Positions 1-6,071 of a DNA stretch of 36,723 bases are shown here, in pieces. Position numbers and translations under genes: made by a program. The DNA is from Bacteriovoracaceae bacterium (GTDB taxonomy: Bacteria > Bdellovibrionota > Bacteriovoracia > Bacteriovoracales > Bacteriovoracaceae). How positions within the stretch are numbered: the stretch's first letter is position 1; every line of letters begins with the position of its first letter. Location: positions 24,609-61,331 of the forward strand of contig JAHDBN010000015.1 of assembly GCA_020630335.1 (NCBI GenBank), read 5' to 3'. The notes beneath the pieces are model-generated. The model ran no database searches and had not been told where the DNA came from. It saw nothing but the letters and a program-made list of their open reading frames with translations.

Positions 1-102
1 ACCTCCAGAACTTGAACCTCCAGAACTTGAACCTCCAGAACTTGAGCCTCCGTCATCTGAGCCTCCGTCATCTGAGCCTCCGTCATCTGAGCCTCCGTCA
101 TC
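1..102 (-). repeat. In-frame 15-base tandem repeats coding a DDGGS/SSGGS linker
   Basis: Read on the minus strand, four units coding Asp-Asp-Gly-Gly-Ser are followed by three units coding Ser-Ser-Gly-Gly-(Ser). Units of each type are nearly identical at the DNA level, so copy number could change by slippage without breaking the frame. The array runs to the window edge and may continue. It codes a flexible acidic linker of the prepilin. Confidence 0.9.
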
Positions 103-903
103 TTCGTTGATTGAATCGCCTACAGGAGGAGTTTGGTTGCAATTTCGGTTTCCATTTAAACTGATTACTCCATTCTCTTCACTTGGACCACCATTAAAAC
201 AGTTCTTCTGTTCTGGCGAGGTATCTTGGGGATCATCGTTGCTTGCAGTTAAATCATATGCTTTATTTATACAATTTCCATTTTCATCCAAAACATTGGA
301 GCTTTCATCACTTCCTTTACCATTGATTTCAGAACAAGCATCAGCAATGACTCTATCTCTTAAATTGTAAATATCAGAGTAGCATGCAATCAATATATTA
401 TTCTGATCAAACTCGGCATATAAATTCAAAGTTCTCTTTATAGCTTCTATTCCAAGTCCTTTAGCTTTTTTAAAAATAATATTCAGAGTTACTCTTTTAG
501 ATTCATCTTTTTTTTCAAGATATAAATCTTCTACAAAATAATCATGTGAGAATGGGCGGTTAGGAGAGATAATACTCGAGCCTTTTCCGACTAGTACCAG
601 AGGAGTGGGAGATTTTGATCTATAGTTTTGTATATTAGAAAGACTAACCTTGTTATTTACAAGCTCAAGGTTTTTGAAATTTTTAGTACAATGCATGCTA
701 TCAAGAAGAGAGGTAGAAAGCCTACTCATAAAAGTATCAACCTCTATAGTATTTTCAATTTGCTTTGTTGCAGTAGTAACTTGTTTCATTATTTGCATAG
801 ATAAAATTGACAATAATCCTATTATTGCAAGGGCTACAACAATTTCCATAAGGCTCATCCCTTGATTGTTAAGAATGCTAAAAAATGAATTGTTTTTTTT
901 CAT
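1..903 (-). CDS. Prepilin-like protein with Gly/Ser/Asp linker (C-terminus outside window)
   Basis: The frame starts at ATG 903 and stays open for 301 codons to the left edge, so the gene is partial. It begins with a class III signal: a short basic leader, Gly15 before Met16, Glu20 at +5, then a hydrophobic helix to about residue 38. Prepilin peptidases cut and methylate such proteins before assembly into pili or type II-like pseudopili. Cys72 and Cys174 line up with Cys65/Cys158 and Cys74/Cys180 of the two neighbouring prepilins. The segment around Cys174 (Lys-Gly-x-Gly, Arg, Leu, Asp, Cys-x-x-Asp) resembles residues 154-182 of the giant prepilin. Residues 268-301 are DDGGS and SSGGS repeats. 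The giant prepilin has a similar linker just before its Cys-rich part, so another domain probably follows beyond the edge (inference). It lies 16 bases after the leftward prepilin gene at 920-1804, with a purine-rich ribosome site, so the two likely form one operon. Confidence 0.82.
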   Translation of the reverse strand, partial: MKKNNSFFSILNNQGMSLMEIVVALAIIGLLSILSMQIMKQVTTATKQIENTIEVDTFMSRLSTSLLDSMHCTKNFKNLELVNNKVSLSNIQNYRSKSPTPLVLVGKGSSIISPNRPFSHDYFVEDLYLEKKDESKRVTLNIIFKKAKGLGIEAIKRTLNLYAEFDQNNILIACYSDIYNLRDRVIADACSEINGKGSDESSNVLDENGNCINKAYDLTASNDDPQDTSPEQKNCFNGGPSEENGVISLNGNRNCNQTPPVGDSINEDDGGSDDGGSDDGGSDDGGSSSGGSSSGGSSSGG

Positions 904-919
904 ATTTCTCTCTTTTTAA

Positions 920-1804
920 TCAAGATGCACTGGAATGATTAATTATATCTCCGGCAGCAGGAGCATCATCAGCCTTAATAGGTTCACAAATCAAGCTTCC
1001 ATCTTCGTTAACTCCGGTCATCATAAGATTTTTAGGACATCTTTTCCCTGGCATATAAAGAGGATTTTTTTTACAAATAGGAACCAGTTCTTGTTTGTTT
1101 CCTTCTACGGTATTAATGGCATATCTTTCTATTGCATATCCAATAGGACATGAAACTTTTTTTGATGTATCAAATCCTATGAAATGACAATCCATTGACT
1201 TTGAATTTAATGATGCTCCGGCGATATTGGCATCTATTTCAATTCCTGTGTTGCAAATTTTACGTATGCTCTGTGAAATAACTCCATTGGGTACATCATC
1301 TTTATAATTTTCATCATAAGGATCATAATAACAATTAATAACCCTTCTTGATTTATCAATTTTAGCGAACAGATGGATTTCATTTTTTATTTCTTCAGGA
1401 AAATAAACACTTTTTTGAAATTCTTCTTTTAGTTTTAGATAGTATTCAAGCTTGATAAATCCAGTGTCTTTATCTGTGAGTTTTATACTTGTAACAGTGA
1501 AGGCTTTATTGGATCCAACTTGTTCATTTTTTTTAAATAATGTACCAAATCTACTAGAGCTTAGTTCTACATAATCACTTCCAATTGAGAAGCCCGAGAA
1601 GGCTTCTGTGCAAATATCCATATTTGTTAAATAATCCTTAAGCTTTTGATTATATGTATAGAGCTCTTGTCTATAATATGATGCTTTTATAGATTTCGTT
1701 GCGATGCCAGATCTCTCAAAAAGGAAAGTAGCCATAGCGGTTAATAACCCAATTATAATTAATACTTGTGCTAATCCAAAACCAGCGTTGTTCAACTTTT
1801 TCAT
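920..1804 (-). CDS. Prepilin-like protein with Gln in place of Glu at +5
   Basis: A 294-residue protein. The start is placed at ATG 1804 because this gives a short basic leader (MKKLNNAG) before the cleavage site Gly8/Phe9; a TTG 87 bases upstream would add a long, unlikely leader. A hydrophobic helix spans about residues 9-29. The +5 position is Gln13, not the usual Glu. In type II secretion, the tip pseudopilin GspK is the known member lacking Glu5, so a tip role is possible (inference). Cys65 and Cys158 match a cysteine pair in both neighbouring prepilins. The C-terminal third has six more cysteines and ends with Asp/Ala/Ser-rich residues. It is first of a leftward pair and divergent from the giant prepilin at 2001. 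No clear ribosome site precedes it; an extended -10-like box sits 10 bases upstream of the ATG. Confidence 0.8.
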   Translation of the reverse strand: MKKLNNAGFGLAQVLIIIGLLTAMATFLFERSGIATKSIKASYYRQELYTYNQKLKDYLTNMDICTEAFSGFSIGSDYVELSSSRFGTLFKKNEQVGSNKAFTVTSIKLTDKDTGFIKLEYYLKLKEEFQKSVYFPEEIKNEIHLFAKIDKSRRVINCYYDPYDENYKDDVPNGVISQSIRKICNTGIEIDANIAGASLNSKSMDCHFIGFDTSKKVSCPIGYAIERYAINTVEGNKQELVPICKKNPLYMPGKRCPKNLMMTGVNEDGSLICEPIKADDAPAAGDIINHSSAS

Positions 1805-2000: not shown

Positions 2001-5000
2001 ATGAGGTTTTCATTGCTTAAAAGATACAAGCAAAAATTTAACAATAAAGGTTTTTCAATTATTGAATTAATGATTGCAGGATCTTTATTGGGAATGTCTG
2101 TTCTTTTTTTTAATCAAATAAGAAAAGATATAGCTAAGGAGACTACTGCTATTCAAGCTGATTCTAAATCTGTTTCAGTATTTAATGAAACCTTCAATTA
2201 TTTAAGTCAGGTACCTATTTGTGAGAGTTATTTCAAAGGTTTAATACTTGAACCTAATAAAGAATACTTCTTTGAAGATGGAGAAGATGATTTTGATGCA
2301 ATTAGTACAGATGGGATTGACGAAAGTGGAGAAGATCTTGGTTATGTGATCTTAAAAGAAGATGAATTTATCGATAAAACACAATCTCTGAGAATTAAAG
2401 AGATAGGCGTAAGAACTGATGATATAAAAGCATATTTTGTTTTAGATCTAGAACGTGTTAAAGGTGCAGGCCTTAAAGAGGTAAGAAGAGAGTTTAGTTT
2501 AAATATTTATAAAGACGCCGATCATAAAGTGACAAGTTGTTTTGACGTTAACGCAAATATTGCATTAACTGTTAAAGCAAAGTCTTGCCAAGGTTTTGAT
2601 GGGTTAACTTATGATAGAGAAACTGGTGAGTGTACTGCCCGGATAGGAATGGATTCTAATGGTGGAGGTGGTTCTGATGTAGCTGTTGATATGTATTATG
2701 ATCCATCTACTCATTCATGGAAAATAAAATTAAAGGACCCAACTGGTCTAATGCCTAATGGTAGCTCTACAACTTCATTGGATGATGGTGGAAGTGATGG
2801 CGGAAATGACAGTGGGGAAGGAATTGAAGAAAACCCTTTAGGTTGTCCTGAAACAAGTAATGATTGTGTTGTTGTTGGTTTTGATAATGCAGGGTGTGTA
2901 TTATGTGAGGATCTTGATACATGTGATTTAATGTCTGCTTTCTCCCAAGGAAACTTGGAAAGTTGTAGTGATATACAAACAGATCCAGAGACTGGATGTG
3001 ATTTTTGTAATGATCCGCAATGCTCCCCTGTTCCCTCTGATTGTACAAATGTAAAAGTAGATCCAGCAACAGGCTGTGAGTATTGTAATCCTTGTGCAGA
3101 AACAACTTGTATCGCTGATTTTTCAATGGTTATAGTTGACGGGTATTACCAGGCTCAGTGTGAAGAAGTTGAACCAATTATTGACTGTAAGACAAATTGG
3201 ATAATAAAAGAACGAGTTGAACAACCTATACCTATTGGTGAAATGTCTGTAGATATAGAATTTGAAGAAGAGGCTAGTCCTAATCAAGAAGCTTATAGTC
3301 TTTGTGAATGTATAGAAGGTGAGCCTTTATTAAAATCTTGTCCTCGTCAATTTAAAGCAGAAATTGAGCAAGAAGCAAATGAGTGTGGAGTGAATTGTAA
3401 TGACCCTGAGCTTGAAGTTGCTCCAGTTGATTCAATTAAATACATGAAAGAAACATTTGCGATTGAAAATGGGAATTGTGAAGATTCAACGAGTGAGGAT
3501 ACTTTTAGTGATTGTGATTGTTCTAATTCCACAGAAACAATTACTTGTAATTCTTGGAAAACTTTAGAGATAACAAAAGAAACTGGAGAGTGTGGAGATT
3601 CTTGTTCGCTACCAGATGGAACTATTTATAAAAATAATGATCCTTGGGAAGTTTACGATGATGATGAAGCGGATTCTGGAATATTTTTTATAGAAAAAAC
3701 AGAGCACAATTGTAATTGTGGAAGTAACGATCCAGCAAACTCAGGATGTCCTGAAGATGTAGAGTTATGTGGAAATCCAGGCCAGCCTTGTTGTTCAGAA
3801 CCTGGCGAGGAAAGCTGTAGTACAGATGAAGGCTTTGAAAGTGTATGTGTTGAAAATACTTGTGAATCTTGTGGTGGACCAGGTGAGCCTTGTTGTAGTG
3901 AAGGAGGCGAGTTCAGTTGTAGTAGTGGTATAGCTTGTAATGAAGAACAAACGGTTCCAACTTGTTGTGGAGGAGTAGGTCAGCCTTGTTGTGAAACTGA
4001 GGAAGAAGAAGGTGAAGAAGGAACAGTAATTGCTTGTACAGAGGGAGGTCTTTGTACACAAAATGAGAATGAAGAAAATGAATGCGTAAGTTGTGGTGGT
4101 TTTGAAGAACCTTGTTGTGTTGATGAAGATGATAATGAAAGCTGTGAGCCTAATGGAGAGAATGAAGAGGGAGAAGTCGTTAGTTTAACTTGTCTTGCAA
4201 ATGATACATGCGCTCCTTGTGGAGGAGATGATGAAGCTCCTTGCCCTTGCCCAGAAGGACAAGATTGTACAGAACTTACAGGTGGAGTAGTTGATAGTGG
4301 AGGAGAAGGAACAGGTGGAACGGATGGAGAATATTTTGATTGTTATTGTTTAAATGGGAAGGAATTAAGGGGAGATTGTTTAACAGGAACTTGTAATGAG
4401 TGTGGTGGAGAAGGAGAGGAGTGTTGTCATGGTGACTGGGATGATCATACTACTCATAGTTGTGTAGATGTTAGCGATGAGGATGGGAATATAACTCAGG
4501 CACTTCAGTGTGTGGATGATGAAGAAGGCTTTATTCCACAAACTGGAATTTTAGAACCAAGTTGTTCAGCTTGTGGAGGCAATGATCAAAGATGTTGTGA
4601 AAATGAAGGGCAACAGGAGTGTTCTTCAAGTGATCAAGCGTGCAATACTCATTTGGAAATATATCCTGGTGGTTTTCATACATGTACTGATTGTGGGAAA
4701 GAAGCAGGACAGCCATGCTGTAAAGATGAGAGTGGTAACAATATTTATGAGAGTGAAAATTTATACCCTCAAGAAGCTTTATTATGTCATGGAGGTGAAA
4801 TTATTTCTTGTGGTGGTTTAGGGGAAAAATGTTGTTTTACTGTAAAAGATGAATCAAGTGTTATGACAAATGTTTCTTGTACTGAAGGAAAATGTAAATC
4901 AAGTTTCTCAGATCCCTATATATTTTTGAAAGAAAATACAGATTATTCAGTTTCCCACTCTATGGCTATCTGTGAGAAGTGTGGAGGTGAAGGAGAACAG

Positions 5001-6071
5001 GCTTGCAATGGATTAGATGAAGTATGTGATGAAGGTCTAGTTCTAAATGAAGATGAAACATTATGTGTCTTAGCTTCTCCTCTTTTAAAGCAATGCGAGA
5101 TCTGTGATCCAGACAGTGAAGATATTTCGTGTGAAAGTGGGAACGTATGTGCTTCTGTTGATGTAGAGTGCTACTCAGGCTCTAATTCAGGATCATGTAT
5201 TGAAGTGTATATATGTCAGCCTCTAGGCAGTGCTGTTGGTAAGGAAGGTAATTCAACATTTGATATTTGTACTTGTAACCCAATATGGGAAGGTAAACAA
5301 GATGGCCTAAATTTAATTATAGGTTGTCCTCCTCCTAGTTCAGGTTTGAAATGGTCCGATGATTGGACAACAATTGAGTCTTGCCCTCCTTTGGGTTCTA
5401 GTTCTGAAATGGTAGAAGTTAAAATGTGTGAATATGAAGGCATACCAATTGCTATACATAGCTGTGTGGAAGCTGGTTTGGGGAATCAACCGAGAAAAAT
5501 AACCTCTTGCCCAACTGAATTAGAATGTTCTAATGATTGTCAGGTAATAGAGGGTACTCCATTTGAAGGAACAATTTGTGCCCCAATGGGAAATACGACA
5601 ATTGTAACCAATACAGTTGCTTGCATGGATACAAGTTGCCCTCAACATGGAGAGACTGAAAGTGTTGATCTTTGTTGTGGGAATCAGTCACTTTGGTATT
5701 CTTATGATCCAAAAGATGGAGCATGTGAATCTGATACTGCTGGAGATTATTGTACTCCAGCATGTGAATCCGATGAAGAGTGTGCCTCATCTGCTGATGG
5801 CCAACAACATTATTGCTGTACTAAAGAAAACGGGATTCATATTAATGGAGCTCCATGTTGTGTTGGTTTGATTCCGTTTAAAGGGAAATGTGTTATTAGT
5901 ATGCCTTCTACAACTTTAAGCACTACTACTACTTCTACTACTACAACGACGGAAATAATAGAACTGCCAAATTATTGTGATGAACAATCAGACTGTTCTT
6001 CTGATAACTCATTTTGCTGTCTTCAAAATGAATGCGTGGTAAATACTTCAGGAATGGATTGCATTCAATAA
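2001..6071 (+). CDS. Giant cysteine-rich prepilin-anchored surface protein
   Basis: A 1356-residue protein, several times longer than a normal pilin. Residues 1-40 are a class III signal (Gly17/Phe18, Glu22 at +5, hydrophobic helix). Residues 18-215 look like a pilin head with Cys74 and Cys180 at the positions shared with the two neighbouring prepilins. An acidic Gly/Ser/Asp linker (about 258-278) leads into a very long Cys-rich region; I count about 128 cysteines in total. Residues 281-370 carry repeated Asp-x-x-Gly-Cys-x-x-Cys motifs. Residues 590-1009 hold about ten CGG-x-x-x-x-CC modules. A Thr-rich stretch near 1305-1320 precedes a final small Cys-rich knot. The architecture suggests a disulfide-stabilised stalk or adhesin held by a pilus or pseudopilus base (inference). 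The start at ATG 2001 lacks a clear ribosome site; a TTG nine bases later is an alternative. It ends five bases from a convergent gene, with no terminator between. Confidence 0.85.
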   Translation: MRFSLLKRYKQKFNNKGFSIIELMIAGSLLGMSVLFFNQIRKDIAKETTAIQADSKSVSVFNETFNYLSQVPICESYFKGLILEPNKEYFFEDGEDDFDAISTDGIDESGEDLGYVILKEDEFIDKTQSLRIKEIGVRTDDIKAYFVLDLERVKGAGLKEVRREFSLNIYKDADHKVTSCFDVNANIALTVKAKSCQGFDGLTYDRETGECTARIGMDSNGGGGSDVAVDMYYDPSTHSWKIKLKDPTGLMPNGSSTTSLDDGGSDGGNDSGEGIEENPLGCPETSNDCVVVGFDNAGCVLCEDLDTCDLMSAFSQGNLESCSDIQTDPETGCDFCNDPQCSPVPSDCTNVKVDPATGCEYCNPCAETTCIADFSMVIVDGYYQAQCEEVEPIIDCKTNWIIKERVEQPIPIGEMSVDIEFEEEASPNQEAYSLCECIEGEPLLKSCPRQFKAEIEQEANECGVNCNDPELEVAPVDSIKYMKETFAIENGNCEDSTSEDTFSDCDCSNSTETITCNSWKTLEITKETGECGDSCSLPDGTIYKNNDPWEVYDDDEADSGIFFIEKTEHNCNCGSNDPANSGCPEDVELCGNPGQPCCSEPGEESCSTDEGFESVCVENTCESCGGPGEPCCSEGGEFSCSSGIACNEEQTVPTCCGGVGQPCCETEEEEGEEGTVIACTEGGLCTQNENEENECVSCGGFEEPCCVDEDDNESCEPNGENEEGEVVSLTCLANDTCAPCGGDDEAPCPCPEGQDCTELTGGVVDSGGEGTGGTDGEYFDCYCLNGKELRGDCLTGTCNECGGEGEECCHGDWDDHTTHSCVDVSDEDGNITQALQCVDDEEGFIPQTGILEPSCSACGGNDQRCCENEGQQECSSSDQACNTHLEIYPGGFHTCTDCGKEAGQPCCKDESGNNIYESENLYPQEALLCHGGEIISCGGLGEKCCFTVKDESSVMTNVSCTEGKCKSSFSDPYIFLKENTDYSVSHSMAICEKCGGEGEQACNGLDEVCDEGLVLNEDETLCVLASPLLKQCEICDPDSEDISCESGNVCASVDVECYSGSNSGSCIEVYICQPLGSAVGKEGNSTFDICTCNPIWEGKQDGLNLIIGCPPPSSGLKWSDDWTTIESCPPLGSSSEMVEVKMCEYEGIPIAIHSCVEAGLGNQPRKITSCPTELECSNDCQVIEGTPFEGTICAPMGNTTIVTNTVACMDTSCPQHGETESVDLCCGNQSLWYSYDPKDGACESDTAGDYCTPACESDEECASSADGQQHYCCTKENGIHINGAPCCVGLIPFKGKCVISMPSTTLSTTTTSTTTTTEIIELPNYCDEQSDCSSDNSFCCLQNECVVNTSGMDCIQ
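3768..5027 (+). repeat. About ten diverged CGG-x(4)-CC protein modules
   Basis: Within the giant prepilin, residues 590-1009 contain successive modules of the form Cys-Gly-(Gly/Asn)-x-(Gly/Glu)-(Gln/Glu)-(Pro)-Cys-Cys followed by further cysteines after 6-20 residues. Examples are CGNPGQPCC, CGGPGEPCC, CGGVGQPCC and CGGLGEKCC. Two late copies have lost one of the paired cysteines (CGGDDEAPCPC, CGGEGEQAC). DNA identity between copies is modest, so this is an old protein-level repeat. Confidence 0.85.

What the first reader, a model, noticed from the sequence alone, without database searches (positions are those of the whole stretch)
2001..6071. A 1356-residue pilin-anchored protein with about 128 cysteines
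A prepilin signal followed by a pilin-like head and then about 1080 residues of acidic, cysteine-packed modules is far outside normal pilin architecture. It would need extensive disulfide formation in the periplasm and could form a rigid fibre or prey-binding stalk.
Basis: partly seen in the sequence, partly recalled or inferred. Interest (0 to 1): 0.75.

Follow-up and report, generated by a model that had tools for sequence, protein, structure and literature searches.

The report
Pilus-tip pilin with cysteine-bead tail
A relative of Bdellovibrio appears to cap its type IV pilus with a pilin that carries a roughly 1,000-residue chain of small disulfide-stapled beads, probably a tough, variable grip for touching other cells; pilins with grafted parts are known, but no such cysteine-bead tail turned up in the databases and papers searched.

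Summary
Observation confirmed. ORF 2001-6071 (+) encodes 1356 aa with 128 Cys, 124 of them after residue 280. The organism is an unnamed member of Bacteriovoracaceae. The N-terminus is a class III prepilin signal (NNKG|FSIIE), a long helix and a pilin-like sheet. The rest has no Pfam, NCBIfam or PDB sequence match, but it is real: orthologues in two sister species keep 95% and 79% of aligned Cys against 45% and 29% of other residues. The core is eight tandem beads, C-G-x2-G-[QE]-x-CC-x(n)-C-x(n)-C-x(n)-C. An AlphaFold model of two beads resembles small disulfide-rich mini-proteins (weak scores). The gene is divergent from two further pilin genes; this trio recurs in the genus and, with a different Cys-rich cargo, in another genus. 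Genome-wide, the profile-detectable prepilins are PilA, four T2SS pseudopilins, and two of this trio. So the trio is the only visible candidate for the minor-pilin (tip) complex of the T4a pilus. A VKOR-DsbA protein can supply disulfides. Best reading: a modular minor pilin displaying a disulfide-bead stalk for adhesion. Carrier role likely; ligand and prey role untested. New variant of a known kind (modular pilins).

The parts
2001..6071 (+). Cys-rich modular minor pilin (protein C), 1356 aa, 128 Cys, calculated pI 4.05, mature about 143 kDa
2001..2051 (+). prepilin leader, residues 1-17 (MRFSLLKRYKQKFNNKG), predicted cleavage after Gly17
   Evidence: sequence; invariant G17 and E22 in three orthologues
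2052..2648 (+). pilin head, residues 18-216: helix 20-68 then antiparallel strands 130-181
   Evidence: AlphaFold model, pLDDT about 52-71 over most of the helix and sheet; weak top matches to solved pilins; homology to family pilins
2649..2840 (+). acidic Gly/Ser/Asp linker, residues 217-280; replaced by thrombospondin type 3-like DGDGVPD repeats in G001 and by Pro/Thr-rich sequence in G002
   Evidence: PF02412 E 0.0013 in G001, under its cut-off
2841..3767 (+). N-terminal Cys modules, residues 281-589, including EPIIDCKTNW, ECGVNCNDP and ECGDSCSLP blocks conserved in the genus; CGxxCNDP also in G108
3768..5030 (+). bead array, residues 590-1010: eight beads C-G-x2-G-[QE]-x-C-C-x(n)-C-x(n)-C-x(n)-C, most joined by CxxC
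   Evidence: two-bead model; fold matches
5082..5891 (+). C-terminal Cys region, residues 1028-1297, with a conserved W-x3-W...C block (no TSP1 profile match)
5892..6068 (+). Thr-rich linker and terminal C...DCSS...CC...C module, residues 1298-1356
   Evidence: sequence; similar ends in G001, G002 and G108
920..1804 (-). pilin-like protein A (NAGFGLAQ, Gln at +5); open frame runs from 1891 but the start conserved in the genus is the ATG at 1804
1..903 (-). pilin-like protein B (NNQGMSLME), cut by the window edge; the contig has a run of N just beyond

Best explanation
A modular minor pilin. The prepilin leader directs the protein to the inner membrane, PilD cleaves after Gly17, and the N-terminal helix lets the head assemble with its partners A and B into the initiating, and therefore tip-located, complex of the cell's type IVa pilus. 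The remaining 1,076 residues are exported as a chain of small disulfide-rich modules: N-terminal Cys modules, eight six-cysteine beads of one type, a C-terminal W/Cys region and a terminal CC module. Their disulfides form in the periplasm, with the VKOR-DsbA fusion as the likely oxidant. The chain sits beyond the pilus end as a protease-resistant, acidic stalk with many variable loops and acts as an adhesin or cell-recognition surface, in the role PilY1 or grafted lectin/vWA modules have elsewhere. Shown by sequence: signal, head homology, conserved trio, conserved Cys, bead repeat. Inferred: use by the T4a pilus (by elimination), tip position, disulfide state, adhesion. Adhesion itself about 0.55; prey as the ligand about 0.35.
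For: Signal G|FSIIE and genome-wide prepilin census: PilA, GspG/H/I/J, B and C only. The T2SS holds its own pseudopilins and secretin, so the trio is the only visible candidate minor-pilin set for the PilQ-PilO-PilN-PilM-PilD-PilA locus. Head: helix 20-68 plus sheet; the two top VIA matches are pilins (9a1f, Z 5.2, rmsd 3.5 over 106; 6qvf, Z 3.7), weak scores; homology to a short pilin-like protein of G005 at E 2.7e-10. Trio A-B-C conserved in G000, G001, G002 and, by contig ends, a second time in G002; also in G108 with a 90-Cys cargo. Cys conserved 58/61 while other residues are 45% identical to G001; 33/42 against 29% to G002. Beads: eight in register; two-bead model pLDDT 71.8 with matches that are mostly disulfide-rich mini-proteins. 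VKOR-DsbA fusion. Family-wide use of pilin heads as carriers: S74-chaperone and YadA-head tails. Precedent: PMC8179133, PMC12075869.
Against: No experiment. Curated prepilin models score the head slightly under their cut-offs. The head model rests on three sequences and has modest confidence; Foldseek alone gave nothing significant for it. Bead fold matches are weak (E 0.57 or more; Z 3.0 or less). The trio is not next to the pil locus. One genus member, G003 (94% complete), has no match to C or A, so the set is not indispensable. Protein A lacks a strong prepilin profile match, and degenerate signals can escape the census.
Confidence: 0.7

Rival explanations
1. The cysteines bind metal (copper, zinc, iron) or store or sense redox state at the cell surface, rather than forming structural disulfides; the pilin head merely anchors a metallothionein-like or metal-scavenging chain.
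For: CC and CxxC pairs are common metal-ligand spacings and the chain is strongly acidic (pI 4.05).
Against: Six-Cys beads with a Gly/Pro framework like disulfide mini-proteins; almost no His in the chain (12 of 1076); exported to an oxidising compartment with a VKOR-DsbA oxidase encoded.
Confidence: 0.12
2. The trio belongs to the type II secretion pseudopilus or the Tad pilus instead of the T4a pilus, and the Cys chain is a substrate-docking or plug element.
For: Both systems are encoded in the genome (GspD and GspG over their cut-offs; a Tad-like locus with a secretin and an Flp-like protein); the top structural match of the head is a chain of the T2SS pseudopilus model.
Against: The T2SS operon carries a G-H-I-J-K series of its own; the Tad locus has its own TadE/F-like genes by appearance; a 143-kDa protein with a 1,000-residue chain would be hard to fit in a periplasmic pseudopilus.
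Confidence: 0.13
3. The chain is a cleaved or injected effector: toxin-like cysteine beads are delivered by the pilus and act on the contacted cell.
For: Bead spacing equals that of framework XXXII cone-snail peptides, and the C-terminal module of the G002 orthologue weakly matches cystine-knot toxin profiles (E 0.016 and 0.31).
Against: Neither match is significant; the same mini-protein folds serve many non-toxic binding roles (colipase, Dickkopf, IGFBP); no processing site was sought or found.
Confidence: 0.05

Closest known systems
Modular type IV pilins (Streptococcus sanguinis PilB and PilC; PMC8179133, PMC9934059)
   Same: N-terminal pilin module fused to a large module foreign to pili, probably tip-exposed; carrier plus effector logic.
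   Different: Cargo is a tandem array of disulfide-type beads within 1,076 Cys-rich residues, not a single vWA or lectin domain; in that survey the most extreme multi-domain case was 860 residues in all (12 copies of one motif). No database domain covers it.
Myxococcus xanthus Kil (Tad) tip complexes KilL/M/N (PMC12075869)
   Same: Predator-associated set of minor pilins, one large with a variable C-terminal domain; predicted models rich in disulfides.
   Different: Those are Tad-pilus heterotrimers; here the best assignment is the T4a pilus, and the cargo is a repeat chain.
PilY1/PilC tip adhesin with its minor pilins
   Same: Proposed role: tip adhesin of T4a pili carried by a minor-pilin complex.
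   Different: PilY1 is not a pilin and has a beta-propeller; P0001 has no PF05567 match.
Framework XXXII conotoxins (PDB 2MW7; PMC9741281) and colipase/Dickkopf/knottin-like mini-proteins
   Same: C-CC-C-C-C spacing and CGxxG[QE]-CC signature; two-bead model aligns to 2MW7 with rmsd 1.8-2.0 over 34-35 residues.
   Different: Animal peptides, single domains; sequence match E 0.41 and weak structural scores, so similarity of design, not shown ancestry.

Membership tests
Type IV pilins (class III signal prepilins) | Basic leader ending in Gly, hydrophobic +1 residue, Glu at +5, hydrophobic helix | tested here: met
   Sequence; G17 and E22 invariant in three orthologues; helix 20-68
Type IV pilins (class III signal prepilins) | Score over the curated model cut-offs PF07963 / TIGR02532 | tested here: inconclusive
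   19.7 of 21.2 and 15.6 of 16.3 bits; the GspI-position pseudopilin of the same genome is also under the TIGR02532 cut-off
Type IV pilins (class III signal prepilins) | Long helix packed on an antiparallel sheet | tested here: inconclusive
   Model shows it, but pLDDT is modest; top VIA matches are pilins at Z 5.2 and 3.7
Type IV pilins (class III signal prepilins) | Cleavage by prepilin peptidase and presence in a filament | not testable with these tools
   PilD is encoded (PF06750 and PF01478)
Modular pilins | Pilin module plus an additional module not specific to pili | tested here: met
   Head followed by 1076 Cys-rich residues in one frame
Modular pilins | Extra module mediates a pilus function such as adhesion | not testable with these tools
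   No functional data
PilY1 tip adhesins | PF05567 beta-propeller domain | tested here: not met
   P0001 has no match
Inhibitor cystine knot (knottin) proteins | C-C-CC-C-C spacing with 1-4, 2-5, 3-6 pairing | tested here: not met
   Window beads are C-CC-C-C-C; pairing not testable. One C-terminal module of the G002 orthologue has the C-C-CC-C-C spacing
Framework XXXII conotoxins | C-CC-C-C-C spacing with the CGxxG[QE] signature | tested here: met
   Bead 624-655 is C-x6-CC-x7-C-x5-C-x8-C; listed peptides
Framework XXXII conotoxins | Common ancestry | tested here: inconclusive
   Profile hit to 2MW7 at E 0.41; not claimed as a member
Thrombospondin type 1 repeats | TSP1 profile match in the W-x3-W...C region | tested here: not met
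   No Pfam match at E up to 10 and no relevant PDB sequence match

The most novel reading that the evidence does not exclude
The pilus tip of these bacteria is armed with a long chain of toxin-like, disulfide-stapled mini-proteins whose variable loops recognise (or act on) the contacted cell: an exchangeable bead library, with cargo and linkers swapped between species on a fixed three-pilin base.
Probability: 0.25. Interest if true: 0.75.

Novelty: new variant of a known kind. Interest (0 to 1): 0.58.

Why it matters
How Bdellovibrio-like predators recognise other cells is poorly known, although pili are required for prey entry in Bdellovibrio (PMC3818213). If this protein caps the T4a pilus, it names a single gene (and two partners) to delete, label or swap. 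It also gives a bacterial example of a tandem disulfide mini-protein chain, and shows that pilin heads in Bacteriovoracaceae carry many cargoes (Cys beads, S74-chaperoned tails, YadA-like heads, collagen-like repeats).

Tried and rejected
Chance Cys excess or assembly artefact: rejected (synteny). Known domain in 281-1356: Pfam, NCBIfam and PDB sequence searches empty. Plasmid copies of the protein or of a bead stretch: none. Viral contigs: none. Gln at +5 of protein A as a special tip mark: dropped, because many pilins in the family have it. Thrombospondin type 1 repeats at the W-x3-W block: no profile support. PilY1 absence: 0 of 39 genomes, but the 14 control genomes were silent too, so no conclusion. 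The first genome-contig scan with the single protein found nothing; the alignment scan gave the two named sister MAGs. Head model against PDB by Foldseek: nothing significant. Promoters and terminator by consensus scan: no excess over shuffles. No dedicated signal-peptide predictor was available. Bead distribution outside the phylum was not tested; from memory, similar CGGxGQxCC repeats occur in some myxobacterial proteins (a lead, not a test).
Full report
1. The observation. The open frame at window 2001-6071 (+) encodes 1356 residues with 128 cysteines, 124 of them after residue 280. At the cysteine rate of the other window ORFs (112 in 9890 residues) that excess has log10 P near -80. Residues 281-1356 are also very acidic: 217 Asp+Glu against 35 Lys+Arg, calculated pI 4.05.

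2. Where it comes from. The window lies on contig C5 of a 2.36 Mb, 98% complete genome. The alignment scan of named genomes returned sister contigs titled Bacteriovoracaceae (JAHDHG010000146.1, which corresponds to G001:C110, and CALHLC010000040.1, which corresponds to G002:C40). Whether this organism is a predator was not tested.

3. The head. The start MRFSLLKRYKQKFNNKG|FSIIELMIAGSLLGMSVLFF is a class III prepilin signal by inspection. Curated models place it just under their cut-offs but among the top seven sites of the whole genome. AlphaFold with three sequences gives a 49-residue helix (20-68) and an antiparallel sheet (130-181) at moderate confidence. Foldseek was not significant; in the VIA re-alignment the two best chains were a T2SS pseudopilus model chain (9a1f, Z 5.2, rmsd 3.5 over 106) and a Thermus competence pilin (6qvf, Z 3.7), both weak in absolute terms. 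The profile of three orthologues finds short pilin-like proteins across the family, for instance at E 2.7e-10 in G005.

4. The genes beside it. Divergent from it lie two further pilin-like genes, A (920-1804, -; the open frame begins at 1891 but the start shared with relatives is 1804) and B (1-903, -, cut by the window edge). The trio recurs in G001 and G002 in the same layout. The G001 protein is split between two contigs, whose outer neighbours (A and B on one side, the same 278-aa gene on the other) match the window. G002 seems to have a second trio, all on one strand after groEL, whose third gene runs off the contig; a separate contig begins inside a Cys-rich protein that may be its remainder. 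Genus member G003 has no match to A or C. In G108, a different genus, A, B and a 1173-aa, 90-Cys third protein lie in a row, with a fourth pilin-headed, collagen-like protein behind; A matches at E 2.0e-28.

5. Which filament. PilQ is over its cut-off, with PilM, PilN, PilO, a prepilin peptidase and a PilA-like major pilin in the same locus. A T2SS operon carries GspD and GspG over their cut-offs and its own pseudopilin series. A Tad-like locus is also present. The only prepilins that two profile censuses detect are PilA, GspG, H, I, J, and window proteins B and C. By elimination, A, B and C are the visible candidates for the minor-pilin complex of the T4a pilus. This is inference; degenerate signals can escape such profiles, as A does.

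6. The cargo. Residues 590-1010 hold eight beads of the form C-G-x2-G-[QE]-x-C-C-x(n)-C-x(n)-C-x(n)-C, most joined by CxxC, with loops from 4 to 25 residues. Before them lie Cys modules with blocks conserved in the genus (EPIIDCKTNW, ECGVNCNDP, ECGDSCSLP); after them a region with a conserved W-x3-W...C block, a Thr-rich linker and a terminal CC module. Cysteines are kept in 58 of 61 aligned sites against G001 while other residues are 45% identical, and in 33 of 42 against 29% for G002; in the C-terminal half the figures are 49 of 60 against 30% (G001) and 38 of 52 against 25% (second G002 protein). This is what disulfides would impose. Linkers turn over: short acidic in G000, thrombospondin type 3-like repeats in G001 (PF02412, E 0.0013, under its cut-off), Pro/Thr-rich in G002. 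With a bead profile, 3 of 291 genomes of the phylum match at E 1e-4 or better, all of this genus.

7. What a bead looks like. A two-bead model from 13 aligned bead segments has mean pLDDT 71.8 and repeated short strands. Foldseek's matches (E 0.57 and above, none significant) are mostly disulfide-rich mini-proteins: double-knot toxin, IGFBP domains, Dickkopf, sponge and spider knottins, and Conus Mo3964 (rmsd 1.8 over 35 columns); VIA gives a prokineticin-type toxin, Mo3964, colipase and Dickkopf at Z 2.0-3.0. The bead profile's only PDB sequence hit is also Mo3964, at E 0.41. The published framework XXXII list shows the same spacing and CGxxG[QE] signature (PMC9741281). I read this as similarity of design, not as shared descent, and not as evidence of toxicity.

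8. Disulfides are feasible. The genome encodes a VKOR-DsbA fusion (PF07884, PF13462 and PF01323 over their cut-offs).

9. Mechanism. The best-supported reading is a modular minor pilin: a pilin head that assembles with A and B as the initiating tip complex of the T4a pilus and displays a chain of disulfide beads outside the cell, as an adhesin. Streptococcus PilB shows the carrier-plus-module principle (PMC8179133), and Myxococcus Kil tips show it in predation (PMC12075869). Pili are required for prey entry in Bdellovibrio (PMC3818213). Steps shown: signal, head homology, trio, repeat, conserved Cys. Steps inferred: filament assignment, tip position, disulfide state, adhesion, prey as ligand.

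10. Wider pattern. In the same family, pilin heads also carry S74-chaperone tails and YadA-head repeats. Among the roughly 57 matches outside the genus, about 17 frames are 400 residues or longer, but of those read only the G108 protein is comparably Cys-rich. The Cys-bead pilin is thus one case of a general use of pilins as carriers in Bacteriovoracaceae.

11. Verdict. Observation confirmed; interpretation partly supported; a new variant of a known kind (modular pilins). The unusual parts are the bead chain and its length, and that the protein seems to sit in the only minor-pilin set of its genome.

Noticed in passing
L067:4125-7106, L068:3685-6384, L075:3251-4705: Pilin-headed proteins of other Bacteriovoracaceae end in S74 (endosialidase) chaperone domains, one with YadA-head repeats: tail-fibre-like cargo on pilins.
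   Followed up: partly
L068:977-8999: In G016 several pilin-headed proteins of about 870-910 aa stand in tandem, at least one with an S74 domain.
   Followed up: no
L065:8816-10390: G108 has a fourth pilin-headed protein (524 aa) with collagen-like GPQGPQGPAGP repeats next to its trio.
   Followed up: no
L023:9306-12441 and L024:1-1621: G002 seems to carry a second A-B-C cluster behind groES-groEL; the C gene ends in TSPTAP repeats at a contig end, and a Cys-rich remainder may sit on another contig.
   Followed up: partly
L022:4606-8502: The G002 orthologue has long poly-Thr linkers between C-terminal Cys modules, and C-x-P-G-x2-C type repeats in place of some beads.
   Followed up: no
L066:6387-9667: G109 has two tandem pilin-headed proteins (593 and 523 aa) followed by another large one, a further possible carrier cluster.
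   Followed up: no
window 1-120: Gene B runs into a GGSSS/GGSDD repeat and the contig has a run of N just beyond the window edge, so the repeat length of B is unknown.
   Followed up: no
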